This document shows positions 1-52,813 of a stretch of 64,000 nucleotides of DNA, piece by piece. The notes under the pieces were generated by a model, which ran no database searches, was not told where the DNA came from, and saw only the letters and a program-made list of their open reading frames with translations. A program made the position numbers and the translations under genes. This DNA is from Sphaerolaimus hirsutus (Eukaryota; Nematoda; Chromadorea; Monhysterida; Sphaerolaimidae): positions 3,290,529-3,354,528 of the forward strand of contig OZ038451.1 of the NCBI GenBank assembly GCA_964036195.1, read 5' to 3'. Each line of letters opens with the position of its first letter. The stretch's first letter is position 1.

Positions 1-470
1 CCCAATTTGCCAATTATGAAACATACGTTTCCAGGAAGTGATTATTATTATCATGTTGAATATACCTTATTCTATTTACGTCATTAGGAACATTTACACT
101 ACTATTTACAGTTTTCAAACCCTATTTTATTAGTTCCAATGTGCGTCAATGTTTTCTGACAAATTGAAGCAAATTAGTAAATCGGCCGAGTTTGCCGACT
201 TCGCGCCTCTCAAGATTAATAGTTTTCTATTAACCCAATTTGTACCTGGTATTTCTTTACCATAAGTATTTGAATGTATGCACGCATAGAATAGGCCAAC
301 TGTTTCTGTCAAATGTGTCTTATTGCTATATTAGTGGTTTATCTGTGCATTTATATTAGGAAATTACTGTAGCTGTTTTTCTATACGTGATTTCCGTGTC
401 TTAGCTACTTTGAGAGTTTTTACTTCAGTCTGCGGACCCACCCCAAGTGAACAAAATAAGCTAGCGATAG

Positions 471-684
471 AAACTTCGACTAGGAAGCTCGCTAGGCTTT
501 GCGCCTTTATATTTGGCTGTATCTGATCAAATAAAGTACCTGCAACAATTTCGAACCCCTTTCAACACGCAACCACGAAATAAACTCAACTTGGCTGTCG
601 ACAAGTGGACGTACGGCTACAACGGGAAATCAACCACTCTAAAGGCCGTTTCTCACTACGGTCTTGAAGCAGCCGGATTCGGTG
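471..684 (+). CDS. Exon 1 seen: ectodomain and start of hydrophobic Gly/Ala segment
   Basis: The open frame begins after a stop at 468-470, with a possible acceptor (gatag) just before 471, so an upstream coding exon is likely. It ends at a GTAGAA donor at 685. The last residues before the donor are Gly/Ala/Phe-rich and run on into the next exon as one hydrophobic stretch. Reading through the donor gives an apparent GGRRR basic site, which is intron sequence if the donor is used. The start of this exon is the least certain border of the gene. Confidence 0.45.
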
Positions 685-3600
685 GTAGAAGACGCTGACT
701 TCGGTGGCTTCATCACAACATTTATTATGGCGCCTTCTGATTTGTCGGATGTCACCATTTTGTTACCTTTTCCGTACACTATCTGCAAGTACCACGCAAG
801 AACAGTGTGCACAGGGAATTTTTGTATTAGCAATTTAGTGAGGTCATCCCTGAGGGACCCCTAAACTGTGACCGATCAAATTGTCGATTGCACTGCATGA
901 TGTGCACACAAAAAATGTTGTAAGGGGGTAAGCAAGTCAAAAATTTGCGAGAAAAACGGCTAGCTGTATTGATTTCGACAACGAAACATGTAACAGTATT
1001 ACCTCGAAATACCCCCACCCCCAGCAAATATTTTACAGTCTAAATTTAAAGGGGGCGAAATGACGCAAAAGAGGGGAGTGTAATTTAGAGGTAGAGGGGG
1101 GTCAATTTTTATCCATGGTACTATAAAAAGCACAGAAAACTTGTAACTTAGATGTGTCATTGTCAAAATCCATACAGCTATCGCGTATACTCGATTGGGA
1201 AAAAAATTGAATACACTGTTGAATACCCCCCTTGAAAATGTTCACCTCCATTTCCCTGAATGTTTCCGGATTGAAAAAGATGCTATTCAGAAGCAAGTCA
1301 TAAATCCATGGTCCATAAATATAGTAAAAGAATTGTAAAAAACCCATTAGTAAACATTTCATTAGTGTATTTGCTTGAATATACACTTTTTATCCATCTT
1401 TATTAAGTGGGGACAATTTCCGAGGGGGGATTATTGAAACAGATGCATCATTCAAGAAAATATGCAAATGTTTTGAGCTAATGTATTTACTGCGCATGTT
1501 GCCACCACCTAAATCTGATTGCAGCAAGTTTGGCCGGCATGGGCGTCATGATGGTGGACCAAAATGGACAGATTCACGACCTGAAAACGCAGGTGCACGC
1601 ACATCACCAGATGCTGATAAACAATGCGGAGTATCTGCAGACACTGGCAAATGCCAGTAGCTTTCAATCGTGACAAATACTTGTGGCCACAAAGGGAATA
1701 AGCCACAACAACAACAGGTAATATAAAATTTTTTGGCACTCAGCTTAGACATATAACCTTGCCAATAACATTCCCATTTTTAATTTTAAACTTTAAGGAT
1801 CATCTTGAATGGGAATGTGGGCCTACTCTGCGGTGTGTATAATGGTTACACAAACGTTGTCGGAACCAACGTAGATAGTGTGACATCGACAAACGTATTG
1901 TTCAATGCACTCTGCCCCAGCTCCTGCATCAGGGAGATTGCGCAGCGCATGGGGGTCGCATGGAACAGCAAAACGTTATATGACCAGGTGAGCAATGCAA
2001 TTATCGCAATCAACGTTTGCCACTTAAGTTTGTCTGGTGAAATGTACAAACGTTTTAATCATGAAGATGCCCGGTCTGCTCGCTCAACTGGGTTCTGCCT
2101 ACCCGAGCAACTACAACAAGAAAACGAGGACGCTGTCTTTGACAGTGTGCGCGCCCCGGGTAACCAGCACTGATGACGTATTTATCATAGGCCACCTGAC
2201 GCATGCTGGCGGCTTCACCAAAGATGGCGCGTGCTATGCCAAGCCCAGTGTCAGTTCATCCAATTCCAAAATTGTACAAAAAACAGTAAAAGTGCAATAC
2301 ACTGTTATTTCTTCACAGCTAAATCCAAACATTGCGTTCCCGATGTCTGCCAAAGGCCTGAGCGATGCTGTTTTCCCACAGGATTGCAAGAAAGTCGCCA
2401 ATGCAGGTAGTTTTACCTACAAGTATCAGAGTTGTTAAAAGTACTACACTTTCGCAAGGAAACCTAAACGTATTTACGCAGTACTCTAGTATCTGTAATT
2501 ATCGAGTAAATGTAAATACGTTTTAACAACTGTGCTACAAATCTAGATGTAAAATATAAATGTAAATACAACCATATCCGTAGAGCGCTGCGAAGATTTC
2601 CTGACGGACATGCCACACAGCAACAAATCGTGCTGGGTCAAAGAAAAAAACAACTTCAAAGAATGCCCAATGGTAGAAAATTCTATATTTCAATTATTTC
2701 ATTCATTTTTCTACTATTATGCAAATGAAATACATTCTTTCAGGATGAAGTAAAGTGCATACCGCCACACGAACAATTCATCCACGTCACAGCATCCGGC
2801 GACAGCTACATTGTGGCAACAACGTGCAAAACGTAAATTTTTTATTTTTCCATGGTACTTTTTTTTAGTGGTAGAAAAAATGGCCAGGCGTAGAGACGCA
2901 GAGTATGCGTACAAATCGACCATAATTAAATGAATAAAACCTTGTGAACTAATTCCTAATCAATTACTCCATAGTAGTATTATGATGAAAAACTGTAAAC
3001 CATATTTACTCGAAATACCCACAGGGTTTTTTTTCACAGTCATAGGAAAAATTGAGACATCCAACTAGTGATGGAAATGGAAGTGATGGAAAGGCACCGG
3101 GGCACCAGCACTGGTGCTGGTGCAGTGTGGTGCCATTTTTCAGGGGTGCGGAGGTATTTCGTGGAAATATCGTAATATTTGATACATACGTTTCCATACC
3201 ATGTGTGATGAGTATACACATGTACAATTGTACCCCCTTTTCCAGCTACAGCCTGATGAACCGCACTGACGCCTGGGATCAGACTACATACCCGATCGGT
3301 CCGGAACGCGTCTTCCAGCTGCACGTGCCAGTCGGCCATGTCGCTCAGGTATGCGACCACCAGCACAGGGTGATCCTGCCGCACATTGGCGCTGGAAACC
3401 CCGTGCCGCGCCACAAGTTTGTCATCAAGCAGTGGAACGTGTCGCACCCGGACGTTGTCGAAGCCAAGACAAGTGAGATTTCTTGCACTTTTATCAATTT
3501 CACTATACCACCTTTGTTAAAAAGTATTTACATTTACTCATTAAGTGCGTATAGTCGCGAATAGTGATGCAAAAGCAGGCGCTCATGCCAAAATAAAAAG

Positions 3601-4866
3601 CCATGGCGCTTCTGGCGTTTGGAGTTAATTTTCTCACCATTTTTCTGGCACCATTCGCATTATTTCCATCACTAGTTGAGAATGTCTGAATACATTTATG
3701 TTTCCTCCAAAAAATACTGGTACTAAAAAGTTAGAAAAAAAACAGACATTGTATAAGTAAAAAGACATTTGTGGAGAAACGAAAGACCGAATGATCCTCA
3801 AAATCTTCAAAAGTAGCCTCAACCTATAGTAAAAAGTAATACAGGTTTACCTCGAAAATGTACTTTGAATAACACAACACTATATTACATAACCACAAAC
3901 AACACAACGCAGTGTTGGATGCTGCGACCAAACTCATGACGGACGCCAAGCAAACACAAGCCCGCATCCAGAAAATGACTGACGGGCAAATAAAGGCCAC
4001 AACCGTTAGTTTAATTGCTCCACATGCTATGAAAGGCGGTGTTTACACGCAATGACTGTGTGACGACCATGGCTTGATTTTTTTACCATTTTGGGGGGAT
4101 GAGAATGAAATGTTTGACATTTGTGATGGCTTGATCAAAAATGTTTTATCAGCCTCATCACCTAGAAAAAATGTCAAATGGCAGATATTTCATTATCATG
4201 AATACTACATCATATTTTTTTCTTGTCATAACACTGTGTCGTGGGTTGTCGCCAAAACTTGTTCAACGAGGTTCATAGTACAAAAATGTCTGCGACAGTC
4301 TGTGATGACAGGAAAAAGGTATGATCTAGTGTGCATGATTGTGAAATATATTGGGTTGATTTTTTTATTAGGTTGTGGGCATGTATTACCATATCACATG
4401 TTTCATTCTCCACAAATGTTCAAAAAATGAAAACATTTGTGGTCACACGTAGGGTTCAAACGGGATACCGATCACTATCCCGGATCCCGTGAAATTCCAG
4501 GATTTAGCATTCCCGATCCCGATCCCGAAACCCCAATCCTGATCCTGATCCCGATCCAGAAATCTCAAAAAGTGAATCCCGATCCTGATCCCGATCACGA
4601 AAAGTCAATCCCGTTTGAACCCTAGTCACACGGTCATTGACAGTAAACAAGCCCTTAAAGTCGGAAGTGCACACACACAACAATGTAAATGTCAATCAAT
4701 GTAGGTGAAAAGCGTGTCGGCAACGAAGAATAACTGGGCCTTGTGGGTGATCATAGCTGGCAGCACCGCTACTGTACTGTCTATCTTCTGCGCCTGTTTC
4801 TGCTTCATGAAATTTTACTGTTGTGTGCCCAGGCGCCCATCGAACTACGAAATGTGCGCCATGTGA
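471..4866 (+). CDS. Multi-exon class I fusion-like membrane glycoprotein gene (N-terminus missing)
   Basis: Nine exons can be read on the plus strand: 471-684, 1525-1669, 1798-1987, 2067-2406, 2584-2672, 2744-2832, 3246-3472, 3913-4004 and 4705-4866. Each of the eight introns starts GT and ends AG and every junction keeps frame (leftover bases 1, 2, 0, 1, 0, 2, 1, 0), which is hard to get by chance. The product is about 515 residues plus a missing N-terminus. Order of parts: leader domain, hydrophobic Gly/Ala-rich segment, amphipathic helix, Cys-rich middle with several N-glycosylation sequons, a second polar helix, a transmembrane span of about 25 residues, and a short Cys-rich tail. This is the plan of class I viral fusion proteins (paramyxovirus F-like, retroviral or arenaviral envelope). 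No family was identified. The introns say it is a cellular gene, either an old domesticated envelope or a host protein of like design. No disabling lesion is visible. Transposons occupy several introns. Confidence 0.6.
1525..1669 (+). CDS. Exon 2: hydrophobic segment end plus amphipathic helix
   Basis: The acceptor is tctgattgcag and the donor is GTGACA at 1670. An earlier GTAGCT at 1657 breaks the frame with the next exon, so 1670 is preferred. The exon begins with a Gly/Met/Leu-rich hydrophobic run (SLAGMGVMM), followed by a polar helix with heptad-like hydrophobic spacing (LKTQVHAHHQMLINNAEYL) and an NAS glycosylation sequon. This order matches fusion peptide then heptad repeat 1 of class I fusion proteins; that assignment is an inference from layout. 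Confidence 0.55.
1798..1987 (+). CDS. Exon 3: Cys-containing ectodomain
   Basis: The acceptor is aactttaag and the donor is GTGAGC at 1988, in phase with its neighbours. It encodes about 63 residues with three cysteines (LLCGVYNG and CPSSC), followed by a helix-like stretch ending at YDQ. No known domain was recognised. Confidence 0.6.
2067..2406 (+). CDS. Exon 4: beta-rich ectodomain
   Basis: This is the longest exon, about 113 residues. The acceptor is atgaag, before an ATG that is internal here, and the donor is GTAGTT at 2407. The product alternates polar and hydrophobic residues as in a beta sandwich and holds cysteines in SLTVCAP, GACYAK and PQDCKK. No domain family was recognised. Confidence 0.6.
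2584..2672 (+). CDS. Exon 5: Cys-rich linker
   Basis: The acceptor is atccgtag and the donor GTAGAA at 2673. The exon encodes about 30 residues with three cysteines (RCEDF, SCWVK, ECPM) and an NKS glycosylation sequon, as expected of a disulfide-bonded extracellular segment. Confidence 0.55.
2744..2832 (+). CDS. Exon 6: Cys-containing beta segment
   Basis: A strong acceptor (attctttcag) precedes the exon and a GTAAAT donor follows at 2833. It encodes about 30 residues with two cysteines (EVKCIPP and ATTCKT). It keeps phase with both neighbours. Confidence 0.55.
3001..3172. mobile_element. C-rich CCGTATTT-type element fragment with nested TAGTGATGG insert
   Basis: Left side reads catatttactcgaaatacc and right side ggtatttcgtggaaatatcg, a decayed inverted pair. 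Between them, from 3066, is a TAGTGATGG end followed by GGTGCC-type motifs (gcaccagcactggtgctgg), related to the element ending at 60177. It lies in the intron between exons 6 and 7 of the glycoprotein gene. Confidence 0.45.
3246..3472 (+). CDS. Exon 7: ectodomain
   Basis: The acceptor is ccccttttccag and the donor GTGAGA at 3473. It encodes about 75 residues with NRT and NVS glycosylation sequons and a single cysteine (VCDHQH). A possible internal donor at 3348 (GTATGC) could give a shorter isoform, but the longer form keeps frame with the next exon. Transposon fragments sit in both flanking introns. Confidence 0.55.
3562..3674. mobile_element. Short hAT-type MITE, TAGTGATG ends
   Basis: A 113-bp element with ends tagtgatgc and ccatcacta, flanked by gtcgcgaa and gttgagaa (6 of 8 match, a plausible decayed 8-bp duplication). 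Internal ggcgc motifs link it to the larger element at 13671-14595. It lies in the intron before the helix exon at 3913. Confidence 0.5.
3913..4004 (+). CDS. Exon 8: membrane-proximal helix
   Basis: The acceptor is acacaacgcag and the donor GTTAGT at 4005. About 30 residues form a polar, helix-favouring stretch (KLMTDAKQTQARIQKMTDG) with hydrophobic residues at roughly heptad spacing. It lies just before the transmembrane exon, where heptad repeat 2 sits in class I fusion proteins. Confidence 0.55.
4450..4624. mobile_element. hAT-type MITE with CCCGATCC subterminal repeats
   Basis: A 175-bp element with inverted ends tagggttcaaacggga and tcccgtttgaacccta, flanked on both sides by a perfect 8-bp duplication gtcacacg (4442-4449 and 4625-4632). 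Almost all of the interior is iterated cccgatcc/cctgatcc. A related copy without a clear duplication lies at 30515-30652 and a fragment at 27570-27632. Confidence 0.85.
4705..4866 (+). CDS. Exon 9: transmembrane anchor and cytoplasmic tail
   Basis: The acceptor is caatcaatgtag and the stop is TGA at 4864-4866. After a short polar lead the exon encodes one hydrophobic span (WALWVIIAGSTATVLSIF), then a Cys-rich juxtamembrane patch (CACFCFMKFYCC) that looks suited to palmitoylation, and a tail of about a dozen residues ending NYEMCAM. This is a type I membrane anchor. The preceding intron holds the transposon at 4450-4624. Confidence 0.65.
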   Translation: MKSVSATKNNWALWVIIAGSTATVLSIFCACFCFMKFYCCVPRRPSNYEMCAM

Positions 4867-5138
4867 ATGATGGTATCTACATTTTTTGGGGATGCTTTTT
4901 CTCTGTGTTTTTCGGTCGTATAGGTTTCACAGTGATTCAATTACTGCGTCGAAAAAATATCATTGACAATAACCTCCTCGAATAACTGCTTGATTACTTC
5001 AGTACTGTGCAGTGTTCCTAATTTTTGAAAATAACCCCTGCAAAAATCCTCATTCATAAAATGAGATGAAAAAATATATATATTCAGGAGTTATTCGAGG
5101 ATACACGTACACCGTACCTGGAAATCCCCCCCCCCCCA

Positions 5139-5855
5139 TGTTTGCATGTTAATTAGGTAAATTAGCACCAGCATGCACAATATTTGTGCAAGATGGTTAC
5201 AGATTTTTTGGGGGTGTACATTTATTTCGATTTGTATAAAATGTGACATGCGTGTACTCCTTAGTTTAGTGAGCTCACATGCCAAGTGTCAGGTCAGAGC
5301 AGTTAGTGGTTTTTCTGTTTGTTTTTTACGCTTTCATTTTTGTTGTTCACTATAATTTTGTTCAGTGAACGAAATCTAATGACTGGGGAGTGGTCGCTGG
5401 CAATAGGAATGGCCCCAACCATTTCTTTCCAGTAAACAAACAATTCTATTCGCTGACCGAGGACGTTCATCCCCGACAGGAAAGAGGGGTCCGTCCACTG
5501 TCCACTGATGAACGTCCAGCGGGACCAAAATTGTTTGTTTACTGGAAAGAAACGTTTGGGGCCATTTCTATTGCCACCAGGGCCGGTATCGCGGTGAAAA
5601 TTTGTTCACAAAACAAAAATACAGTGAACGACAAAAATGAAAGCGTAAAAAAACCAACAGAAGAACCACTAACTGCTCTGACCTGACACTTGGCATGCGT
5701 ACTGAAGAAATGAACTCACTTGCCAAAATTGAGACAAATCGAGAAAATTTATACACCGCCCAAACAATATGCATCCGCATGTCTAACCATCTTGCAGAAA
5801 TGTTGTACATGCTAATTTGGTGATAATTAACCCACTTGAAATGCAAACAATCCAT
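5139..5855. repeat. Foldback repeat, about 350-bp arms
   Basis: The left half (tgttaattaggtaaattagc onward) and the right half (ending gctaatttggtgataattaa) are imperfect reverse complements. The inner arms are 5390-5450 and 5520-5580, which share ggcaataggaatggccc and its complement. The right half is related to 12290-12650, so this is a dispersed family. The open frame at 5390-5686 lies inside the hairpin and is not considered a gene. Confidence 0.6.
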
Positions 5856-5869
5856 ACACAACAATTATT

Positions 5870-6935
5870 GACTTTTTTTGTTATTTGAAAAAAAATTTTT
5901 TTAGCGTGGATTTCATCATACCTTCTTTGATGTAAATACAGCGGGGGAGGGGGGGGGGGGGGGGGTTCGAGGAAATACGCACCTTGTATTTTTGTTTTGA
6001 ATTTTCTGAAGTGGCTGTTTTGGAAAAGTTCAATTGTTTCAAAGTTGCCTTCTTGATGAATTTCATTTTAATTTACGTGTTAATAAGGGGTAGTGATGTG
6101 AAAAGCACCAGGACTTTGGCGCCAAGTGCCAAAAGCGCCAATTTGCACTTTTTGCTTTGGCGCTAGCGCCAGGCGCCAGGCATGACGCTTTTACATCACT
6201 AGCTTTGCACCGCTTCGCAAACTAATGTTCTGTTTTGAAATGTTATTGATGTTGCATTAAATTGTTATTTTACATTTTTATTTTATGTTTTTTTACATTG
6301 ATAAGGGCCACTTTTAACTGTTGTTGAACATGGGAAGTAGAAATGCTAAATGCTTCACACCTTTCACATTTGTTTGTTTCCTTCAATATATTGGTGTTTA
6401 GTGGATAAAATGTTTTTGTATGCTGTCAAAAATGATGTTTTTTTTCATAGAAATGTGTGTCAAAAAGACTTTTGAAGTTTTAAAAATTCCTGCAAATGCT
6501 ACAAAAACACCCTTGAATAACTCCCTAATCTATTCAGTACTGTGTGGTTGTCTTCTTACGAAAGGTACAACAATCACCCATGCAAAAATCTTTTTTCATA
6601 AAATATAAAATAAATGAGAAATTAATCTATTCGGGACTTATTCAAGGATTGAAGGATGTACTCCGTATTTCTGCCGAAATCCCCCCTCCGGGTTGCCCGG
6701 ATGTTTACTATTACATAGTGAACATTTTTAGTACGAGCATGGATTTCATCATACTTTCTTTGATGAACATACAGCGGGGGGGGGGGGGGGGGGGGTTCGA
6801 GGAGATACACTTTTAATTTTCTGTTTTTCATTTTCTGAATTGGCTGTTTTGGAATAGTTCAACTGTTACAAAGTTGCCTTCTAGACAAATTTCATTTTAA
6901 TTTGCATGTTGATAAGGCTTTAGGCCGCTTTGCAA
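5870..6935. repeat. Diverged direct duplication with nested element
   Basis: Segment 5900-6090 is repeated at 6735-6920: both have ggatttcatcata, a poly-G run of about 19, ttcgaggaaata-like sequence, then ggctgttttgga and aaagttgccttct. The first copy is interrupted at 6091-6201 by a 111-bp element with ends tagtgatgt and acatcacta and internal ggcgccagg, absent from the second copy. The flanks do not show a clean 8-bp duplication. Confidence 0.6.
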
Positions 6936-7314
6936 ACTTTTGTTCTGAAATGTCATTGATGGCGAAGTAAATTGTTATTGTATTTACATGTTGATACAAA
7001 TTTGCATCGATTTGAACTCGCGTTGCACTTTGGACATGGAAATGCTGAATGTTCCTCCTTTCACATTTTGTGTTTCATTCAAGGTATTTAAATATAGTGC
7101 ATGATAATAAGCAGTGCGATTACATTTACTTTTGCCATTGTATGAGAACTGGATAATGGTATCAAAAATGATGTCTTCTTCTTGTGGACAATTTCTGTTT
7201 AACTGAATGAATCCATCAAAACAATTCCCCTAAATACACAGAAATTATTAACTGCAAAAAATACAAATTGGCACATACAAAAATCTAAATACAAAAATAA
7301 AGTACCGTATTTCT

Positions 7315-7648
7315 TCTAATAGAAGAGCTTCATTCTATTTTTTCATCAACTTTTTTACCTACCGTTATTTTAGAGGTGCCTTTCTACTGGAAAATGCCGT
7401 TCTATTTTTTTCACCAAAATTTTCAAATTTCTCATTTCAAAAAAGCTTTATTTTAAATGAATTGAGCAATATTTCAATATCAGAGAATCAATTTCAGATG
7501 TAAGACATATTTGAATGTTTTGCATGTTATCACCATCCATCTTTATCAATTTTTGCGCTTTGGCACACTCCCAACATTATACATACATGCCATTATATTT
7601 GAGGTGTCGTTCTATTGCAGGTAAGCCCTTCTATGTTACAAAATACGG
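7315..7648. mobile_element. CCGTATTT-type MITE with TTCTATT motifs
   Basis: Ends are ccgtatttcttctaatag and acaaaatacgg, each bordered by TA (7313-7314, 7649-7650). The interior repeats ttctattttttcatcaa and ttctattgcagg. The same internal style recurs in the tandem repeat at 61000-61260. Confidence 0.6.
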
Positions 7649-7765
7649 TATTGACCTTAATTGCATTACAAAATCATGGAAAAAATGGTACATTTGACAA
7701 ACATATCGCCAAACCAAGAAAAACATTTGAAACATTGAAAAATAACCCAAAACACAACTTATAGA

Positions 7766-7909
7766 TCACACATTATGCATGACGCGGTTGCCCTGAATGA
7801 ATTTTTTGTGGTAAGTGAAAAAAACTACCACCAGGGAAACGAGAACGATGATGGCGGTCACCTGTCCCACAACCAGCACGTGCATAGCCCACCTGCTGCG
7901 CAGATCTTC
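7766..7909 (-). CDS. Terminal transmembrane exon, paralog 1
   Basis: On the minus strand the acceptor (cgcaatgcag) is followed by 47 codons and a TGA at 7766-7768. The product has a short polar lead, one transmembrane span of about 23 residues (VTAIIVLVSLVVVFF) and a basic tail (TYHKKF...MHNV). It is a close copy of the exon at 10082-10231, which shares the FFTY.KKF.QGNRV core. The upstream exon at 8401-8618 ends in frame with it. Confidence 0.6.
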   Translation of the reverse strand, partial: EDLRSRWAMHVLVVGQVTAIIVLVSLVVVFFTYHKKFIQGNRVMHNV

Positions 7910-8400
7910 CTGCATTGCGATAAATACAAATTGTACACTTTATTATGCAACCACGAGTAAATCAATAAAATCTACGAATCTGAACAAGCTTACTACCGAC
8001 TACAGATCATACTTGTCCGAGAGCTTAAGCGCTTCCAACAGCTTTCCATGAGAATGACCTGATTTGGACAACCAAACAGCTTATTTAAATTTGCAGGATT
8101 TTGTATTTCGGCCACAGTAAAACACATGCATTAAATAAAATGATCCACCATATTTACTAACGATGGATCAATCAATCAATGTCATCTTCATAGGATCTTA
8201 TTCAAACAGGGAGCTGTTCAAGATGCACGTTTACGTGAGGATATCATTGTATGTAACAGGGATCTCCAAGGCGGACTTAATTGAGGGCTCAATCGAGTAG
8301 AAGCAGCAGCTCCAACAATTTCTAAGTGTAGGTTTTTTGCACTATCTTGGCGTACCACGCAAAAATTGTGCAATGACATCCACTACTAAACGGAACTCAC

Positions 8401-8618
8401 CATCTGGGGTAACTGTTGCATCTTGGCGGTGAGGTCGTACAGCTTGGTGATGAGCTCGCACATGACCGTGGTGCACGGCTGCGTCATGTTCGCCCCGTTG
8501 AGCGCCTCGGCCAGCCAACCGTCAGTCGTGTTGCTCAGATGAATATCAACGTTACGCCGGTTGCGAGACAGCACGTCTGTGCTGCTCTCATTATCCAACA
8601 AGGATGCTTCCGTCAAAC
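8401..8618 (-). CDS. Ectodomain exon with basic site and helix, paralog 1
   Basis: The acceptor is atccatag and the donor GTGAGT (8395-8400). The 72 residues contain a basic cluster SRNRRN, NTT and NMT glycosylation sequons, a conserved block GWLAEALNGAN then CTTVMC, and a C-terminal helix (ELITKLYDLTAKMQQL) leading into the transmembrane exon. The paralog at 10976-11175 shares intron phases and the AEALNGAN..TQPCTTVMCEL block. The function is unknown. The layout (cleavage-like site, disulfide, helix, anchor) again resembles a viral envelope C-terminal part, but no family was recognised. Confidence 0.55.
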
Positions 8619-8624
8619 CTATGG

Positions 8625-10080
8625 ATTACAGGCTATTCATTTTAATGTGATCTCATGGGCCATGCTTAACCGATACCAAATTTAGACCGGGAAACCGCAC
8701 ACATTTTATTGACACATTTAATTATACCCGGCATGCTGACAGTAGGCAATAAAACACATGACCTAATGATTTGGAAGGTGAACATTTATAAGAAGTATAA
8801 AAATGTCCAATTTTTGATGTAAATTAGATAAAAATTACTCAAAAGAGCTCCAGATACATAAATAGCTAGGCAATTCGAGGGGGGGGGGGTTCAGGGAAAA
8901 GTTGCCAAAAAAATGACTGCCAGGATAGATACATTGATAGATAGACAAATAAGATTGCTGGGGTGACACGTTGACACGGATGACACAAAATTTAATGTGC
9001 GTTAGGTCTAGATGTGGGATGGGTTTAGAGGTCGGATGACACGGGCTCATTTCATGCACCAGTCTTCTTTTAACTATGCCAAACTTTGACTAAACCAAAA
9101 GGAAGAGGGTCGAAATGGAACTACACTGAACTTACACACTGTAGTGTGTGAACGTAACTTCTTTACTACTTTAACAAGATTTAACAAGATGTTCCATCAT
9201 TCAGAAACATTTATTTAAAAAATATAAAAAGTGAAACAAACAGAAAAAAAACAGCAGCGCCGCCATGAAGCTGACGAAACCCATTGTAATAATTTCTGTT
9301 GTTCAATAGCTACAAATCAATTTTCAAAAGAATGTGACGATTTTGCAGGGAGTGCACATATGAAAGAACATTTACTTGCCCACATGTGCCATTCACTCAC
9401 AAAGTGTCCATCATAAACAGTTTACATTATCGCGATTGTCTGTCAACCTATGGGACTTATGCTATATTATATTTTCGCGGGGTCAATATCGTGTGCGAAA
9501 AATTACGTCCGCCTGGATTCCCGTCCAGAGAATCAAATAGAATAAAATTATAGCAACTCATACTAATAAAAAAAGTAGCGAATAACAAAGCCATATATGA
9601 AAATACACTAAACAACATAATACTGTTTTGTTTTTACTGTTTTGTTTTAACTGAATGCATTTAGCTTCAAAGTGCATTTCCATGCTAAGTGTACTGTTCG
9701 CCGAGTATACGGCCAGACATAATTTTCAACACACACCATTGACCCCGCGAAAACAATATGACAAAAATCCCGTAAAACAGACGTTGCATGTGATGAGTGC
9801 ATAAACAATTAAGTAACACAATCCTTGCAATAAACATTTGAATGGCAGATGTTGCATTCTTGTTTGAAATTGGGCGCCAAAAATTCAACGTGCATGGTGT
9901 ATTTAATTTACACTGAATACAATTTCAATTTTACACTAGTATATAACAGACAAATAAATAATCAATAATATAAAATACCATGAGACTACTCACAAAAACA
10001 AATATCATAGTATTTAAACATTTAATTTAAACAAATTTCGTAATTTGCCAAATTAAAAAATTCGCCAGAGAACAAAAAAT
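8625..10080. other. Intergenic or intronic, no gene seen
   Basis: AT-rich sequence between the two minus-strand paralogs. It contains a short poly-G tract at 8880-8890, and I see no exon or complete repeat. Confidence 0.4.
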
Positions 10081-10081
10081 T

Positions 10082-10231
10082 TCACACTTTATGCAGGACG
10101 CGATTGCCCTGCATGAACTTTTTGTAGTAGGTGAAAAAAGCTGCAGCGATGCCCACGAGAATGATGACGGCCATTATGATGAGATGTCCATCAACCAGCA
10201 CATGCATCGCTGACGTGCTGTGCAGATCTTT
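10082..10231 (-). CDS. Terminal transmembrane exon, paralog 2
   Basis: The acceptor gcaacgcag is followed by 49 codons and a TGA at 10082-10084. A transmembrane span (HLIIMAVIILVGIAAAFF) is followed by a basic tail (TYYKKFMQGNRVLHKV). It is homologous to 7766-7909 with many amino-acid differences but no frame break, so both copies look selected rather than dead. Confidence 0.6.
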   Translation of the reverse strand, partial: KDLHSTSAMHVLVDGHLIIMAVIILVGIAAAFFTYYKKFMQGNRVLHKV

Positions 10232-10975
10232 CTGCGTTGCGATAGATGGATAAGGAAAAAACACTAGCACTGTAATATATAACCACGATGAAACAATAAC
10301 CACCCTCTCGAAGAAACCCCACTCAACCTTTCATGTTGAAATAATAAACCCAATGGGGTTTTTCTAGGTATTACGGTAGTTTGATATGTTTCACACAGCG
10401 TGAAACAGAGTGTTATTTCATCCTAAATCAACTCTTACCTTTAAGGGATATTTTGAGAGGTGATATTTCAAGGAAATTCGCTAACTCTGTTCATTTTGGC
10501 AATGAAACATCAGATTGGAATTATTGATGCGTGGTATGCAAATACCATGCAATTTTAAGCAGTTTGAGCACAGTGAAAGAAATGCGACAAACAAGTCAAA
10601 CCCATTTAAGAACAACAGTATTATCAATAACATCTCACTCTTGAGTGTAGTACACAAATATCCAATGTGGACTTTTTCGAGTACAGTGGAATTATTCAAG
10701 GGGACGGTAGGTATTTACTTTTTTTCAAGGACAACTTCATCTACTGAGTGATGCAAAACAGGTATTCATTCGAGCTTCCGTACTTTACGTGGAGATGGTA
10801 TTATTCAAGGGGGGTATTCAAGTTCTCAATCGAGTACAAGCAGCAGCAGCTCTACCGATTTCGACAACAATTTCTAAGTGATAGGTTTTGTGCACTATCT
10901 TAAAGTACCATGCAGGAATCGTGCGACGCCATTAACTACCTTAACTAAGTAAGCACAGAAAATAAGAGCACTCAC

Positions 10976-11175
10976 AACTTTGGTGAAGAGCTCGCACATG
11001 ACCGTGGTGCACGGCTGCGTCGTGTTCGCCCCGTTGAGCGCCTCGGCCAGCCAGGCGGGCGCCTCGGTCGTCTCGTGCAAATGCACCGAACTGCCGCCGA
11101 CTGAGCGGCGGAAACGCAAACGCGACAACACCTCAGTGCTGTTGCGCACATAATCGAAAGCCTTTGGAGCAAAAT
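10976..11175 (-). CDS. Ectodomain exon with basic site, paralog 2
   Basis: The acceptor is ctcag and the donor GTGAGT (10970-10975). The 66 residues contain an NST sequon, a strongly basic furin-like run (RLRFRR) followed by Ser, then the AEALNGAN..TQPCTTVMCEL block shared with paralog 1. It ends at a shorter helix (ELFTKV). The furin pattern R-X-[RK]-R is met by R-F-R-R. It is expected to splice to the transmembrane exon at 10082-10231. Confidence 0.55.
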
Positions 11176-11806
11176 CTGAGTGGGATACAAGGGATACACT
11201 TTACAATGATAAAATAATATATAAATAAACAAAACATTTAAAACTAAAACATTTAAAAAGAAATAGAAAGATTGTGATCGAACATTTTGCAAAACATTGA
11301 AACAATCTTTTTCAATTCACTAATTGAATTACAGTACACTTTTCACATTTAATTTTTCATTTACTGTATATTTTTACCATGAACAAAATTATAACAGCAC
11401 CTTCTACACTGTCATGACTGTCACTATCTGTATTCAATTTTGCACAAAAACTGTACACTTCCATGGCCTTTCCATGGACAATCGGAAAATCGAAATCGGG
11501 ATCGGAAAATCGGATTGCAACAGCCCAAAAACAAAACTCAATCAGGAAACAAACCAATAACGGCTCCGGTTAAGTATGCCAAGGAGCCAATGACCGACAT
11601 CCTCACTATTTATAATGGTTGAAATAGATGTCCGGTAGTAACAATAGCAAATAAGTGACAAGAGTGCTAAAGTTTCTCCTTTTATACAACAGTTAACTCT
11701 ATGCCGCTTCATTCACTGACCCTTTTCCCATTGCAAAATAGAGATAATGACACAATAAATACCTGATTGTAAAAAATGGTCAAACGCATAACCTACCAAA
11801 GTAATT

Positions 11807-11920
11807 CCCGCTGTGCACCACGGGTCATCGTAAATCGCAATCTCGATCATTTGGAGATAAAAAATGGTGCCGCAGGCCATATGCAAACAGATAACAGATA
11901 GATGTTCTATTTTCCCATCA
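11807..11920 (-). CDS. Possible upstream exon of paralog 2
   Basis: A possible acceptor (aaaatag) precedes about 38 open codons with three cysteines and acidic residues (YDDPWCTAGITL), ending at a GTAGGT donor. The phase does not fit the next exon directly, so another exon would be needed between them. This is a weak call. Confidence 0.25.
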
Positions 11921-12099
11921 ACTTTTACCCACCCATCTATTGGATGGGTGCAATTCTCTTGATTTCATGACCGCAAAAATGTGCCAAAAAGTGCCACACT
12001 ATTGGGGTTGTCGTTCTATTAGGAGAAACGCTGAAAAACAAAAACGAAAACAAAAAATGGACAACGAACGAAATGAAGCAAAAAACGCTTCATTTCCCA

Positions 12100-12725
12100 A
12101 AAATAGTGGTGTCGAAAAAAAAATTTACAAACGGGGACGAATGACCCCGACCGGGGCCACTAATTTTCTAATTACAGAAAAAAATATTTCTTACCGGGGT
12201 CGTTTGGCCCCGGTCGGGGACAATTACCACAAAGTGCAAAAAAGTACCATTAATTTTCGTGTGGTACCGGGGCCGATCGACCCCGATCGGGGACAAAAAT
12301 TCTTTGTTTACTGAAAAAAAAATTTTGTATCCGGGGACGTTCGGCCCCGATCGGGGACATTTTGATTTTGCCGGGGACCCGACCCCGGCAATATTTCAAG
12401 CACTGTACAAAAATACAGTGATTGAAAAAATTTAAAGCGTGAAAAAAATGACAACCGCTAACTGCGCTGAGCTGAAATTTTGCATGCGAACTAACCACAC
12501 GCATGAGTACACGCATGCAAAAATTGAGCCAAATCGATAAACTTTTACATACCGTCCAGACAAAAATTCGTCAGCGTGTTTAAACGTCCTGCGGAAATTT
12601 TGCGCATGCTTATTTGGTGATAATTACCTTAATTAACATGCAAATAACCCGTAGAAACCAATTTTTAATTTTTGTATTTTTTTAATTTCTTGCCGGGTCC
12701 CGGTCCCCGGCCGGGACCTGTGTAA
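12100..12725. repeat. Palindromic CCCCGATCGGGG repeat unit and foldback half
   Basis: Between 12130 and 12395 the sequence repeats gaccccgaccggggcc-like blocks at least five times, separated by AT-rich spacers (for example ggccgatcgaccccgatcgg, then gttcggccccgatcgggg). The 12400-12650 part matches the right half of the foldback at 5139-5855. A further ccgggtcccggtccccggcc block sits at 12693. The layout fits a MITE whose subterminal palindromes have multiplied. Confidence 0.55.
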
Positions 12726-12934
12726 ATAGCCAAAAATCAAGGCATTTAAAAATGTGATTTTTTCCAGCCCTACTTGTATTCACACAAAATTTCCACATCT
12801 CCCAATATTTATACTAGAACTTGCATTCCCCTAAATTTTTCATGTCTCACATTGTGCAATGTTTTTGAGGTGGTGTGTGTGTTTCAAGTATAGTGTGTGT
12901 TTGTTTCAGTATGTAGAATTGTATGAGTGTGCAA

Positions 12935-36545: not shown

Positions 36546-37439
36546 TTAAAGTGGCCGCAATAGCTTCCAACAACATCGGTGCGGCACTCGCAGCACAGTA
36601 TCTTCAACTTCAACAGTGACAGTTGCCCCTTCTACACCCTTAACTTCATACGGCCCCTGGAACTTTGGTAAGCTGCGGTCTGCAAACACCAAAAAGAATG
36701 GGCAACAGGCAGTGTTTTTGTTATAAGCCAGGTTATGCTTTAAAACCACAAGAGGTAGTAAATTTTTCCAGTGACAATTCGGATTTTCCCTCTTAACAAT
36801 GGCATAAATATCTCGCAATTGCCCATTAACCCCTTCCACCATCCCGTTAGCTGCTGGGTTGTGTGACAAGGTAGGTGAATGTGCAGTACCGAATTTATCA
36901 CACAACTGCCAAAATGTGCTATTAACATACTCTGTGCCTTGATCAGTAATAATCAAGTGTGGTGCCCCTACCACTGGAAATATGTTTTTCCAAATGTTCC
37001 TTGTAATTGTTTCTGCTCCGCAAGAGGGAATGGGGAATGCAATGACATATCTCGTTAATGTGTCAACTGCTACAACTACTTTTGAATTCACTGTGTCGTG
37101 TTCAAATTGGAACTTGTCCAAATGGATAATTACAAAAGGTTGTGAGGGTGTACCCGTGGCCCCAATCGGCCCCGCGTGCAATCTATGTTGCTTAAATTGC
37201 ATACAGTGTGTGCAAGCCATGCAATATTGTAATACATCAGATTTGAGTGTGGGCCATGAAAAGTACTGGCAGAGTAAGTCGATTGTACATTGCTGCCCCT
37301 CGTGGCTACCATAAATTCCCATGTGTGCTTCTGACAAGCACGCCTGCTGCCATGTGTGTGGTAACCATATAGCATATGTGTTAGCATTGTTTGCAGTCAC
37401 AAAGTATAGTATACCGTCTATTAACAATGCACCTGGCAC
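36546..37439 (-). CDS. Ty3/Gypsy integrase
   Basis: An uninterrupted 297-codon frame. An HHCC zinc module (H39, H46, C73, C76 in EAHMGIYGSHEG and QYCMACTHC) is followed by a complete catalytic triad, D108 (IIHLDKF), D166 (LIITDQGTEY) and E202 (NGMVEGVNG). The D166-E202 spacing of 35 residues is the classical DD35E. A GPY/F module follows (FQGPYEVKG, about 262). No chromodomain is seen. This is the best preserved part of the element. The start given is where the frame opens; the true protein is cut from a polyprotein that is broken upstream. Confidence 0.9.
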   Translation of the reverse strand: MPGALLIDGILYFVTANNANTYAIWLPHTWQQACLSEAHMGIYGSHEGQQCTIDLLCQYFSWPTLKSDVLQYCMACTHCMQFKQHRLHAGPIGATGTPSQPFVIIHLDKFQFEHDTVNSKVVVAVDTLTRYVIAFPIPSCGAETITRNIWKNIFPVVGAPHLIITDQGTEYVNSTFWQLCDKFGTAHSPTLSHNPAANGMVEGVNGQLRDIYAIVKRENPNCHWKNLLPLVVLKHNLAYNKNTACCPFFLVFADRSLPKFQGPYEVKGVEGATVTVEVEDTVLRVPHRCCWKLLRPL

Positions 37440-37512
37440 ACTGTCAGGATCCGACAGTAATTGCGCGCAAACACGTGAAAGTTCTGGGTCTTCCGACTAT
37501 ATTTTATTCCAA

Positions 37513-38059
37513 TCAGCTCTGAAGACAGATGAAATAGTTTTTTGCAAATGTGTTTGTGTTGGTAAAGTGGCCCCCCCGTGGCATCATACAAGCAGCCGCC
37601 CCCCAACCTAAAGCTGTGGGATGTGCTAGTTTGTCATCTCCAAATGCGGGTTCGGAAATAGGGTTACGTGAAAGCGCGTCCACCACCAGATTCAAATTTC
37701 CCGCCCTGTTGCGGAACTCCAAAAATTTTTCTTGTAGGAAGATTGACCAATGTTCTAATTTAGAATGATGTGGTGTCTTAAGCGCTTGAGCAATTCCACT
37801 ATGATCTGTAATCACAATCAGTCTTTGCCCCTCAACAAAATCCACCGGGCGTCGAATCACCCATGCAATACACAAACTTTCTAACTCGGCCGCGGAAAAT
37901 GTAGTGTGTGGGTGTGTTGTGGAACCTTTTGGAAATGTATGAAATTGGATGCAACTTTTTGTCATTCCCGTATTGAGACAGCACACCGCCTAACCCCAAG
38001 GCGCTAGCATCTGTCTCCAAATAATAGGGACGTCCATCATGAATGGGGTGTATCAACAC
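37513..38059 (-). pseudogene. Ty3/Gypsy RNase H, frameshifted
   Basis: Two overlapping frames carry one domain. The 38059-37832 frame has the first catalytic Asp (LETDASALGLGGVLSQ). The 37986-37513 frame has the catalytic Glu region (FSAAELESLCIAWVIRR), the next Asp (IVITDHSGIAQAL) and the C-terminal VVDALSR. At least one frameshift lies between them near 37900-37980, and another separates this region from integrase near 37440-37510. Confidence 0.8.
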
Positions 38060-39105
38060 CTGGTGGGGTTGCCAAGCAATGTTTTAGACTGTGCCACGCA
38101 TCTAACATCGCCACACTCCTCTTAAATTGTGTGTTACCATGTTTCGGCACCTTGCCCTTGAGAACCGTGTAAAGTGGCACTGCGATGCAACTGAAATTGG
38201 GAATAAAATGACTGTAGTAAACACATTTCCCAAGAAACCGCCGCAAATCCTGTTTGTTATGCACCTTCAGTAGGTCTGTCATAGCTGTGACACGTGACGG
38301 TGCTGGTGAGATACCTTCAGCAGTGATTTGATGACAAAGGTACTTGAGTGTGGAGGTGAAGATGTTGCACTTTTTTGGTTGCATGCGCAAATTAGCCCAT
38401 CAAAGGCGTGAAAATAAGTGCCGCAGGTGGACCAAATGCTGCGCAATTGTATCGCTACAACACAAAATGTTGTCAATGTACGCCCTGATCCATGCACTTG
38501 ATAAATTCTCATTTAAATCGGCCAGCACGATATTGATCATTCTCTGGAAAGTTGCTCCAGCGTTTACTGTACCAAATGGGAGATGAGTGTAGCGGTACTG
38601 ACCCAAGCTGCAAACAAATGATGTTTTCTCCCTCATGTCCTTGTCCGCTAGTGGCACATTGTAGTAGTTGTGGCGAATATCTATGGCTGTGAACACTTTG
38701 TGGCCTGCAAACCTCGCTAGAATCTCACCAATACGCGGCAGAGGATAGCTGTCAATTTTGGTTACCAAATTAACCATTTTCAAGTCCACACAAAACATTG
38801 TATAGTCATTATCCCCTTTTGGGGCGATTGTGATAGGGGATGCCCAAGGGCTGTCGGAGTGTTCAATTATTCCTTCCTTGAGCATAGAAGCTATTGTATT
38901 GTGATTAAAATCTTGTTTATTGCTCATAGTGAGATGCTTGTTTTAATGGTGGGTGGTTTGGGTCTGTGAGTATAGCATGCAACACAAGTGGTGTGCACCC
39001 CACATCATAGTCGTGACATGAAAAAAAGTTGTGGAACTCTGTCAACAAATCCTCAAATTGTTTTGTTTCTACATCATTAAGTTGTATTCTATTCTGCATA
39101 GGCAA
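38037..39105 (-). pseudogene. Ty3/Gypsy reverse transcriptase with altered YIDD
   Basis: Upstream motif HPPLKQ (39105-38917), then the fingers/palm: FCVDLKMVN, SYPLPRIGEILARF, FTAIDIRHNYYNVPL, PFGTVNAGATFQRMI. The active site reads YIDN (38469-38480) where the family has two aspartates. A TGA stop at 38400-38402 separates palm from thumb (QPKKCNIFTSTLKYL, RRFLGKCVYYSHFI), both in the same frame. The 5' part joins by a frame change near 38925. The enzyme is predicted dead. Confidence 0.85.
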
Positions 39106-39111
39106 GTTCTC

Positions 39112-39330
39112 CTAAATAAATTTTACTCTGTCCTCCACAGTTAGATTAGTGGAAATTTTGGGGGTAGAGTATTCATCTGGCGGTGGTTTGGGTGTGTGCA
39201 AGGCGCCAGCACAGGTGGCAACTTCATATACCGCTCCAAACATAGCCGCGCAGGTGGTTGAATTCAACAGATGTCCATTTTCACCAAGTGTGAAAAATTG
39301 ACTAGTTGGTAAAACATCAAAATCAGCCAC
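39112..39330 (-). pseudogene. Gypsy pol segment between protease and RT
   Basis: A 72-codon frame in the same strand with no motif of its own. Position indicates the protease-RT linker of pol. The neighbouring 39340-39520 sequence has stops in all three minus frames. Confidence 0.5.
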
Positions 39331-39523
39331 ATTGGGTTTTTTTTAGATAAACTAGCGAACAAGTGGGATTGAAAATTGTCAAGTAATATGATGTAGTTCT
39401 CGCTATGTTCATTCGCATGTTGTACATTTGTAGACCAACTCGTTCCATCTCCTCAGATGGGGTAATGATTAAAGCCGAATTTTTCCACAAAATAGATGGT
39501 ATTTTTTCAGGTTTGTCAGGGGT

Positions 39524-40027
39524 TCAAACTGGCACATTGACATAACCATTTGCTGGTACGTATAAATCCTTATGTAAGCATATGTAGTCGGATAGCATTG
39601 TAGAAAAACTATCTTGAATGTGGTCAAATTGTCTTTGTGCTTCTTCATTTTCAGTTGGAACAACAGTCGTCAGTTTTTCTAGGGCTAATGGTATGATCCA
39701 AGACAACTTCAAGAATGACATAACATCCGTGCCCACAAGTATGTCCTTCATAGTCGTGTTGTTAAAATTCACTAAACACACTACTAACACTTTGTGTCAA
39801 TCTTTATCAATGGGAGAAATATGTTCAAAGTATAATGGCATCTCATACATGGAGCCCTCTGTGGACTTTCCATTTAACATGTGAACTTCAATTTTGGTTG
39901 GGCGTAAATGTTTGTCCATGTCCAAACTGCTTTTTGTAGCGATTTCTCGTAAAAAACTTAGCGGAATGATGGTGTGGTTGCATCCAGTGTTGAGTAACCC
40001 TTTACAAGGTACCCCTTGTATTTTCAA
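39524..40027 (-). pseudogene. Ty3/Gypsy aspartic protease with altered catalytic triad
   Basis: The 40027-39797 frame contains the retropepsin active-site loop, but as GLLNTGCNHTIIPLSF, with Asn at the catalytic Asp position (codon 39989-39991). The second half, DILVGTDVMSFLKLSW, is in the following frame (39790-39524), so there is also a stop or shift near 39795. Predicted inactive. Confidence 0.75.
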
Positions 40028-40260
40028 CTCTGCAAAAATCTGTGGACCATTAGCTTATTCTATTTTTACACATAGTCACTGGTTTTCACCAATGCATGTG
40101 AAAGTGGTGTTTTTTATGTTTGAATTGATTGAATAACTGTCACACTGCTTTGTGTGGTTGTTTTTATACATCAAATTTGAATGTGTCATCGGAACATCAG
40201 TAGAGGCAAAATCACTACAATCTTCAAGTGAATCAAACGTCATCAAATTTTCCTGAAACA

Positions 40261-40794
40261 TCAGAGGCGTCGGTGGGGAAAACGTCTCCAAAAAATTCTG
40301 CCACTTTGGATGTTGTGGTGTCTGCAGTGGGAAATGTGTGTGTAATTTGACCCAAAAATTCCTATGCCAATCATTAAATGACGCTGCCAGGTGGTGTTTG
40401 AATTCATCACAGTAGATCCCCCACAGGCTGTTGGAAAAGTCATTTTCCACACCCATTTCATTATTTTCAGAATAATTATCCTGGTGCTGAATGTTATCAG
40501 TAGTAGGCAATTTAGCAAATGTCTGGGGTTTAGGTTGCCCCCCCCCCCCTGCATAGTGTGTGTGGGTCCAATGCGTTGCACATGACCATGCCCCTGCGAT
40601 TTAGGGGCTAGCGAGTTTGGGTTTATGGAGGTTGAACCAGCAATTTGTGGTCCCTGTGACTCCCATTGTGTCAATCTGCATTCAGAAACCAAGTGTCCCA
40701 CATGATTGGGGTGCAGGCACCATGGATTTTTGGCATTGTCTGCCATGATTTTGGAAATGTTGAAACACGTTGACACACATGGTGTTGGCGTCAC
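40261..40794 (-). pseudogene. Gypsy nucleocapsid region with variant zinc knuckle
   Basis: Reads WCLHPNHVGHLVSEC, a zinc-knuckle-like motif of the C-x2-H-x5-H-x4-C form found in some Gypsy Gag proteins in place of CCHC. The frame differs by one from capsid, with the switch at about 40791. A run of ten C at 40541-40550 (Gly run in the protein) is a likely shift site, after which the coding signal continues in the overlapping 40510-40076 frame. Confidence 0.6.
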
Positions 40795-41807
40795 GTTGAC
40801 TCCCCGTTGGTTATTTGGGGTGTAATTTGTGGGGTTTTTACCTGGAGGAAAAAGTCCTCCACCATTTGTACCATTTGCACTGTTGTCAAATTTTTAGTTT
40901 TGCCTATGTTTGAAAAATTTGCCATCACAAAATGATCATATCTTTGATTGTCATACTTTGCCCACAACTTTGTGGCAACAATGCGGTCTACCATTGCCCA
41001 GTCATAGTTCACCGATTCCCGCAATTCGCGCGTAAATTTTGAAAGTAAGCGTAGATAAAATTTCAAGAATGATTCAGTGTGCGCCATAGCTGCGGAATCC
41101 CATTCTGCCATAGAATAAACTTTATTGACATCTTTAAAAATAGAACATAGATCCTGCAACACTTTGGAATAATTCAGTTAATCGTCTGGAACACACAATG
41201 TTGTCAAAACTCTGTGAGCGTCACCCGTTAATTTAGTGGACAAAACCTCCACCCAGAACTGCTGAAGCATACTGGGGTCCACCACAGACAAGGAGGCCAT
41301 TTGTGCAGAACGCTTCCACTCGGTGAAAGTCTGCTGGTCAACCTTATTAGAAAAAATCAGGATTTTGTCCATCAAGTGCGGTTTCGCCAACATCCAATAC
41401 TTCAACAACTCTACATTTGGTGTGTGTGCCACCGCCACTGGCAACTTCATGAGGTCTTTAACCAACCATGGATCCCTTTGATTTGGTGGCCCCTCAAACG
41501 TAGTTGCGGGCATCTCGGCCACCGCTGTTGTCACCGGCGCTGGGTCCCGCGCGGTAGTTATCTGGGTCCGGTCAAACCTTGGTGACAAAACATCTGTGGG
41601 TGGTGATGTTTGCTGCCACTGCAGTGCTTCAAACCACACTTGTAGATCACTGTACGCCTGCAGCAAGGACTTGACATTATTAGGGTCACTGAATTCACGC
41701 GAGTGCACTAGATCAACATGTTGTGGTGCAGTGACCACAATGTGTCCGCCGTCATGGGCACTTTGCTGAACCAATTCAGATTTGTGCCCCGCCGGGGTAT
41801 TTTGCAA
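40791..41807 (-). pseudogene. Gypsy Gag matrix/capsid with one in-frame stop
   Basis: Two frames in the same register, 41807-41178 and 41162-40791, are separated by a single TAA at 41178-41180. The second half carries a capsid-like helical region (FLKFYLRLLSKFTRELRESV, then KLWAKYDNQRYDHFV). The ATG at 41805-41807 is a plausible Gag start. Assignment rests on position upstream of the nucleocapsid and pol, plus composition. Confidence 0.65.
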
Positions 41808-42178
41808 CCAACATTTGGTCAGTCACCCAAAATAACTGTCAACTCAATGGGTGCCATTGAGTCCGCAATGCCATTGAGAGCGATCTGGCTGAGTGTCGCT
41901 CATACTAGCCCGCGAGGGTGCCAAGAAGCGTGAATTGCGTATCACGTGGTCCCTTACTGGAGTCAGCACGATGGATTCCGGTAAAGTTTAATGCGCTACC
42001 GGTAAGTGCAGAGCATCACAAGCATGGTGCCGACCCTGCGCAATGTGAAGCGCCTGATCCTGATAATGGCGCACCTGTTCTGGGTGGACATGTTCAGGCC
42101 GCAACGCGTTCACAGGATGGGAACACGTGTGGGGGCGCAAAAAGCATGCAGTGCTCACAGTGTCCTCAGACTGGACAC

Positions 42179-52401: not shown

Positions 52402-52472
52402 CTGCAGGTATTATAATGCTTTGTCATGAATGGTAAAGAAAACAAATGTATGAAATATGTGTAAATGTATAC

Positions 52473-52813
52473 CTGTATCCCACATGGATAATGCACTCAT
52501 ACCCACCATCATTTACTTCTTTGAATGTGAATGAACTGCAGTTTGATTGTAAGCAGTGTCTCTCACAAATCCTGTCATGCCTGTCCATTGGCCATGTGAC
52601 ATCATGCCCATCATGCACCCCACTTCCATGCACTCCATCTGTGCAGTGCACCTCCATCTGGTACGGAGCAACGCCTGGTGCCTGCCACAGTGCCGGGAGC
52701 TCCTCACTGACATCCGCAGTGTGCAGTTGGCCAGTGTCCAGATCAACAACTGCACTGGAATGGTTTTCATGTGATAGGGTCGAGCCCAAGCCAGGCCAGA
52801 GAACAAAGTCATC
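52473..52813 (-). CDS. Exon with PAN/apple-like Cys module
   Basis: Acceptor tttattgcag and donor GTATAC. About 113 residues: a Trp/His-rich part (DDFVLWPGLGSTLSHEN, SEELPALWQAPGV), then a Cys-rich end (RICERHCLQSNCSSFTF, then YECIIH) whose spacing recalls PAN/apple domains. PAN modules bind proteins or sugars outside the cell. The domain call is tentative, the exon call firmer. Confidence 0.55.

What the first reader, a model, noticed from the sequence alone, without database searches (positions are those of the whole stretch)
471..4866. Intron-split gene with the plan of a class I viral fusion glycoprotein
Nine exons with eight phase-compatible introns encode a Gly/Ala hydrophobic segment, a helix, a Cys-rich sequon-bearing middle, a second helix and a membrane anchor. 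Directly seen: splice borders, phase, anchor, sequons. Known: class I fusion proteins share this order. Inferred: an old captured envelope or an unrecognised host fusogen. Viral envelopes have no introns, so a working nine-exon version would be a long-domesticated gene.
Basis: partly seen in the sequence, partly recalled or inferred. Interest (0 to 1): 0.8.

Follow-up and report, generated by a model that had tools for sequence, protein, structure and literature searches.

The report
Fusion-protein-like gene inside giant transposon
The spliced gene is real and has the plan of a membrane-fusion protein, but it is not one tamed host gene: it is carried in several copies by a very large jumping DNA element whose type could not be recognised.

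Summary
Partly confirmed. Eight exons (1525-4866) are real: GT/AG borders, phases 2,0,1,0,2,1,0, and a second family (B), 38-71% identical by exon, sharing the 12 borders compared, pN 0.33 against saturated pS 0.78. The true 5' exons lie upstream of the window: a signal-peptide-like exon, and an exon with a basic site directly followed by a Gly/Ala-rich hydrophobic stretch, found in both families. The order fits a class I fusion glycoprotein; the fold is untested, heptad periodicity is weak, and no known family matched.

'Long-domesticated host gene' is not supported. The gene lies in a multicopy element with terminal inverted repeats and exact 9-bp target duplications at 8 of 10 end pairs read. 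One copy spans 67 kb. It holds other intron-split genes without Pfam matches; no Polinton polymerase, Merlin or MULE match fell in located copies. The window holds its right-hand 12 kb (718-12731). Best reading: a giant, intron-bearing, possibly virus-like DNA element with its own fusogen-like gene.

The parts
1525..1669 (+). exon e2 of the fusion-like gene: hydrophobic start and presumed first helix; starts in phase 1, ends in phase 2
   Evidence: B homologue; start border shared; donor weak
1798..1987 (+). exon e3 (CPSSC motif)
   Evidence: 38% identical to B
2067..2406 (+). exon e4 (split by one more intron in family B)
   Evidence: 61% identical to B over the two parts compared
2584..2672 (+). 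exon e5, Cys-rich, one sequon
2744..2832 (+). exon e6, best conserved (71% to B)
3246..3472 (+). exon e7, two sequons
   Evidence: (11 places in the genome)
3913..4004 (+). exon e8, presumed second helix
   Evidence: periodicity reached by 133 of 5000 shuffles
4705..4866 (+). exon e9: membrane anchor, Cys-rich short tail, stop
   Evidence: B homologue
718..12731 (.). right-hand part of the giant element (the rest lies upstream of the window, beyond the Bel/Pao insertion)
   Evidence: aligned with three other copies; exact right end
12450..12731 (+). right terminal repeat of the element (at least 282 bp; found inverted at left ends of other copies); flank AAAAATCAA
7766..8640 (-). gene 2, first copy: basic site, ectodomain exon (about 8389-8625) and membrane exon (7766-7909); limits approximate, read by eye
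10082..11600 (-). gene 2, second copy, with a possible signal-peptide exon at 11555-11600; limits approximate, read by eye
5139..5886 (.). nested palindromic repeat whose arms resemble the subterminal part of the element's ends

Best explanation
The gene is an intron-split type I membrane glycoprotein gene with the plan of a class I fusion protein. It is carried by a giant DNA transposon or virus-like element (67 kb in the one copy with both ends and no known nested LTR element) with terminal inverted repeats of at least 282 bp and 9-bp target duplications. Most likely mechanism: the host spliceosome joins the exons; a host protease cuts at the basic site; the Gly/Ala-rich stretch at the new N-terminus enters a target membrane; the anchored ectodomain folds back and joins the membranes, so that the element can pass between cells, perhaps inside an enveloped particle. 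Shown: exons, phases, conservation between two families, basic site with adjacent hydrophobic stretch, anchor, multicopy element with terminal repeats and duplications, other intron-split reading frames in it. Inferred: cleavage, fold, fusion, particle, transfer. The window copy has a recent Bel/Pao element in an intron of this gene and may not be expressed.
For: Eight exons with matching phases. Two families with pN 0.33 against saturated pS 0.78 and 12 shared borders. Basic site followed directly by a hydrophobic Gly/Ala-rich stretch in both families (DKR- and REKR-). Hydrophobic start of the upstream exon, anchor in e9. 11 places of e7: 6 at 96-100%, 5 at 52%. Same right end before unrelated flanks. 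20 of the 40 listed end matches form ten inverted pairs as I paired them, 8 of 10 with identical 9-mers outside. Partner genes found with both families.
Against: No sequence match to any known fusion protein. Helix periodicity is reached by 978, 4391, 133 and 1254 of 5000 shuffles in the four segments tested. AlphaFold2 of e4 alone gave pLDDT 33. No transposase, polymerase or capsid gene was found in the element; about 12 kb of the 67-kb copy were not read. 2 of 10 end pairs lack a 9-bp duplication, and the window copy's own left end was not found. No RNA evidence.
Confidence: 0.5

Rival explanations
1. The gene is ordinary cargo or an element-specific surface protein without fusion function: a receptor or adhesion-type glycoprotein carried by the giant element, whose basic site is a propeptide or chance site.
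For: No match to any fusion family; weak heptad signal; the element also carries a second membrane protein gene.
Against: The basic site and the hydrophobic stretch directly behind it are kept in two families whose sequence there has otherwise diverged; the order signal, basic site, hydrophobic stretch, Cys-rich middle, anchor is that of class I proteins.
Confidence: 0.33
2. An old captured envelope domesticated as a host gene.
For: Introns; protein constraint between families A and B.
Against: Multicopy, 96-100% identical copies at several sites, bounded by terminal repeats and 9-bp duplications; single copies carry losses and a stop (A2591).
Confidence: 0.05
3. The copies are segmental duplications of a host gene cluster, not transposition.
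For: Three of the family A copies lie within 1 Mb on contig C2.
Against: Exact common right end before unrelated flanks; inverted terminal repeats with identical 9-mers outside at 8 of 10 pairs, against 2 equal 9-mers in 200000 random pairs from the window.
Confidence: 0.04

Closest known systems
Class I viral fusion glycoproteins (and domesticated ones such as syncytins; recalled)
   Same: Order of parts: hydrophobic signal, basic site, Gly/Ala-rich hydrophobic stretch, presumed helices, Cys-rich sequon-bearing middle, anchor
   Different: No sequence match over a cut-off, spliceosomal introns, carried by a DNA element rather than a retrovirus or RNA virus; fold untested
Teratorn, piggyBac-herpesvirus giant transposon of teleosts (PMC6431247: passages; PMC5601938: start of abstract in listings)
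   Same: Very large DNA element that moves as a transposon and carries virus-like genes including an envelope glycoprotein
   Different: Here 9-bp duplications, no herpesvirus-type Pfam match in 29 reading frames scanned, genes split by introns, 67 kb instead of 180 kb
Polintons/Mavericks, some of which carry a fusogen (recalled)
   Same: Large virus-like DNA elements with terminal inverted repeats in animal genomes
   Different: No PF03175 polymerase match in the located copies (70 of 391 candidates scored); duplication 9 bp here, 6 bp in Polintons (recalled)
Merlin and MULE DNA transposons (recalled: 8-9 and 9-11 bp duplications)
   Same: Duplication length
   Different: No PF12762 or PF10551 match in the located copies; far larger, with several intron-split genes

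Membership tests
Class I fusion glycoprotein | N-terminal signal peptide | tested here: met
   Upstream exon begins with ATG and a hydrophobic stretch, 12-residue Kyte-Doolittle mean 2.9 (L028); no dedicated predictor was run
Class I fusion glycoprotein | Proteolytic site directly before a hydrophobic fusion peptide | tested here: met
   DKR- and REKR- each followed by a Gly/Ala-rich hydrophobic stretch, families A and B; by sequence only, cleavage not shown
Class I fusion glycoprotein | Two heptad-repeat helices | tested here: inconclusive
   Helical periodicity reached by 978, 4391, 133 and 1254 of 5000 shuffles
Class I fusion glycoprotein | C-terminal membrane anchor | tested here: met
   19-residue hydropathy maxima 2.1 (A) and 2.5 (B) in e9
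Class I fusion glycoprotein | Sequence match to a known class I family | tested here: not met
   Pfam (8 A exons, 6 B pieces, none over a cut-off); PDB; searched exon by exon only
Class I fusion glycoprotein | Trimeric helical-hairpin fold and fusion activity | not testable with these tools
   e4 alone gave pLDDT 33; step on the whole product referred
Domesticated host envelope gene | One locus kept at a fixed site | tested here: not met
   6 near-identical family A copies plus 5 of family B, in a bounded mobile element
TIR DNA transposon | Terminal inverted repeats with target-site duplication | tested here: met
   8 of 10 end pairs with exact 9-bp duplication; not shown for the window copy itself (0 matches)
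TIR DNA transposon | Transposase encoded in the element | tested here: inconclusive
   No PF12762 or PF10551 match in located copies; 29 ORFs without Pfam family over cut-off; about 12 kb of the 67-kb copy unread
Polinton/Maverick | Protein-primed PolB | tested here: not met
   142 PF03175 matches (70 of 391 candidates scored), none in located copies
Polinton/Maverick | 6-bp target duplication (recalled) | tested here: not met
   9 bp
Teratorn | piggyBac ends with TTAA duplication (recalled) and herpesvirus genes | tested here: not met
   Ends GGCTATTTACAC... with 9-bp duplications; no herpesvirus Pfam match in the 29 ORFs scanned

The most novel reading that the evidence does not exclude
A previously undescribed class of giant, intron-rich, enveloped mobile DNA element of animals (67 kb, 9-bp duplications) with its own class I fusogen, a second membrane glycoprotein and several unknown gene families, which moves within genomes as a transposon and between cells or hosts as a virus-like particle.
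Probability: 0.25. Interest if true: 0.88.

Novelty: new variant of a known kind. Interest (0 to 1): 0.62.

Why it matters
If the product is a fusogen, this is an entry-type gene that depends on the host spliceosome and is kept by a giant DNA element. That would blur the line between giant transposon and nuclear DNA virus, and offer a route by which such elements pass between cells or species. It also warns that an intron-bearing envelope-like gene need not be domesticated: the introns can belong to the mobile element.

Tried and rejected
Rejected: exon 1 at 471-691 (inside an LTR). Rejected: single domesticated gene. Rejected within the limits of the searches: Polinton, Merlin and MULE as owner of the element.

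Led nowhere: Pfam on exons and element ORFs (no family over its cut-off for any piece of the giant element; the Bel/Pao ORFs did match); PDB by sequence (only E 0.75 or worse); IMG/VR with e4, e7 and one Cys-rich ORF; the protein library with e4, the Cys-rich ORF and the e7 alignment (only 2, 34 and 2 candidates, and only proteins of similar short length are tested there, so full-length relatives are not excluded); AlphaFold2 of e4. The HAP2 family search rang nowhere, controls included, so it says nothing. Exon coordinates were off by a few bases for some exons and were mended. In alignment A1 the row L005 was in the wrong orientation; A1 was dropped and replaced by A3.

Literature: eight searches listed no paper that I recognised as this element. 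I saw listings and starts of abstracts only, and passages of PMC6431247. Most subscription journals are not in that library.

Full report
Observation. The eight exons at 1525-4866 are real. Borders are GT/AG, phases run 2,0,1,0,2,1,0 and the frame is open to the stop at 4866; exon GC is 0.517 against 0.364 in the introns. Two donors are weak. The strongest evidence is comparative: the same genome holds a second family, B, in five places, 38-71% identical exon by exon, with pN 0.33 and pS 0.78 (saturated) over the seven exon pieces compared. Twelve splice borders that I could place by eye in both families agree in position and phase: the end of the upstream hydrophobic exon, the start of e2, and both ends of e3, e4, e5, e6 and e7. 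B has one extra intron inside e4. The end of e2, both ends of e8 and the start of e9 were not determined in B.

Exon 1 is wrong. Against the copy at C2:2374056 ('A2374') the window locus carries a 12.5-kb insertion from about -11823 to 717 in window coordinates. Its LTRs differ at 2 of 1288 bases and a 5-bp duplication flanks it, so it is young. Its body, upstream of the window, matches Peptidase_A17 (E 5e-46), DUF1759 (E 1e-32) and, in its envelope region, PF24664 Monjiviricetes_fusion (E 2e-16). A recognisable viral fusion gene of another family thus lies in the retroelement next door, but it is not the finding.

The true 5' exons. In A2374 (L028) one exon begins MHAITIIALIVMISPLCADD, and a second has DKR-AIGAVIGVLARGGAQLL and ends in phase 1, which fits the start of e2. 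Family B has REKR-AAFLGPLIYAGSALLKVGKVV at the homologous place with the same end phase. The window locus carries this DNA too: its stretch -19999 to -11823 aligns with A2374 at 99.3%, and the first of the two exons is visible as an open frame in L024.

What is not shown. The presumed helices are not convincingly heptad-like (978, 4391, 133 and 1254 of 5000 shuffles reach the value). None of 8 A exons and 6 B pieces matched a Pfam family over its cut-off; there was no PDB match better than E 0.75 and no library protein (only exon-length proteins are candidates there). AlphaFold2 of e4 gave pLDDT 33.

The carrier. e7 has 11 places: 6 of family A at 96-100% and 5 of family B at 52%. Four family A copies read at the right end stop at the same bases...GTGTAAATAGCC, before unrelated flanks; three of them share the last 23 bases exactly and the fourth (C1) has a short deletion just inside. 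The last 282 bp match at least 40 places (40 of 1713 candidates scored; 81-100% identity); 20 of the 40 rows form ten inverted pairs as I paired them, 3.6-95 kb apart. Of these ten pairs, eight have identical 9-mers on both outer sides, one of them low in complexity (AAAATAAAA). C3:26790459 and C211 have none; C211 bears the flanks of two other copies and may be chimeric. Random 9-mer pairs from the window agree in 2 of 200000 draws. A2374 runs from C2:2316609 to 2383518 (67 kb) and A2591 from 2506438 to 2601085 (95 kb, with a whole and a partial copy of the same LTR element inside). The C474 copy is 28 kb and also carries e4 and e7; a 28-kb member at C2:27602673 carries gene 2 and the Cys-rich gene, but no e4 or e7 match. 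A search for the window copy's own left end with its flanking 9-mer gave 0 exact matches, so this copy is cut or changed at its left, and its own duplication is not shown.

Other genes of the element. Gene 2, a small membrane-protein gene with a basic site, lies in two copies at 7766-11600 on the minus strand, and again just inside left ends (23 places in all). A Cys-rich, apparently intron-split gene has 34 listed matches: four genes in A2374, four in A2591, two in the member at C2:27602673, one in C474, two just upstream of the window. Weak matches (22-24% identity) lie 13-69 kb from family B on 4 of the 5 contigs that bear B (C571, C16, C11, C664; none listed near the C9 copy). This suggests, without proving it, that A and B travel in related elements; the ends of B elements were not found. 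None of 29 different ORFs of the A2374 copy had a Pfam family over its cut-off. Polinton-type polymerase (142 matches, 70 of 391 candidates scored), Merlin (15) and MULE (1) matches exist in this genome, none in the located copies.

State of the copies. Against the window, exon changes are 0 synonymous/1 nonsynonymous in A2374, 0/2 in C422, 4/4 in C474 (the last two from partial loci; C422 has a gap in e8, C474 in e4), 8/9 in A298, and 5/13 in A2591, where e2, e3 and part of e4 are missing and e8 has a stop. In A298 exon and intron divergence are alike: 17 of 1334 exon bases and 28 of 2008 aligned intron bases. So single copies seem to decay nearly neutrally after insertion, while the A-B comparison shows constraint over the longer term. 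That is what one expects of genes of a mobile element, not of one domesticated gene.

Explanation. Best reading: a giant DNA element with terminal inverted repeats and 9-bp duplications encodes, in spliced genes, a fusogen-like glycoprotein and a small membrane protein, and may spread between cells in an enveloped or membrane-borne form. Shown: exons, constraint, plan, mobility signature. Inferred: cleavage, fold, fusion, particle. The nearest known systems are Teratorn and fusogen-bearing Mavericks (the latter recalled); they differ in duplication length and gene content. Eight literature searches listed nothing that I recognised as this element, in a library that lacks most subscription journals.

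Host. Unnamed: 348 Mb in 762 contigs, those seen up to 34 Mb. Bel/Pao elements point to an animal (recalled).

Noticed in passing
Window 1-717 and 12.5 kb upstream (L024, L025): A very young Bel/Pao LTR element (LTRs 2 of 1288 bases different) whose polyprotein includes a Monjiviricetes_fusion (chuvirus-type) envelope; further copies of the same LTR element sit inside the A2591 and C1 copies of the giant element, at other places, which hints at a preference.
   Followed up: partly
Window 36546-41822, minus strand: A broken Ty3/gypsy-type retrotransposon: integrase, RNase H and reverse transcriptase pieces in separate frames.
   Followed up: no
Window 5139-5886: A palindromic nested repeat whose arms resemble the subterminal part of the giant element's ends, perhaps a small non-autonomous relative.
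   Followed up: no
Genome-wide: The host genome holds many long, uninterrupted PF03175 polymerase frames of about 1500 codons (at least dozens), so it is rich in Polintons, but none lies in the located copies of this element.
   Followed up: partly
Window 52424-54325, minus strand: Several GC-rich open frames that look like exons of another gene; the three frames scanned had no Pfam family over its cut-off.
   Followed up: no
Contigs C211 and C435 of G000: The flanks of the C211 end pair are those of two other copies (C2:27602673 on the left and, inverted, C435 on the right), so C211 may be an assembly chimera or a recombination product.
   Followed up: no
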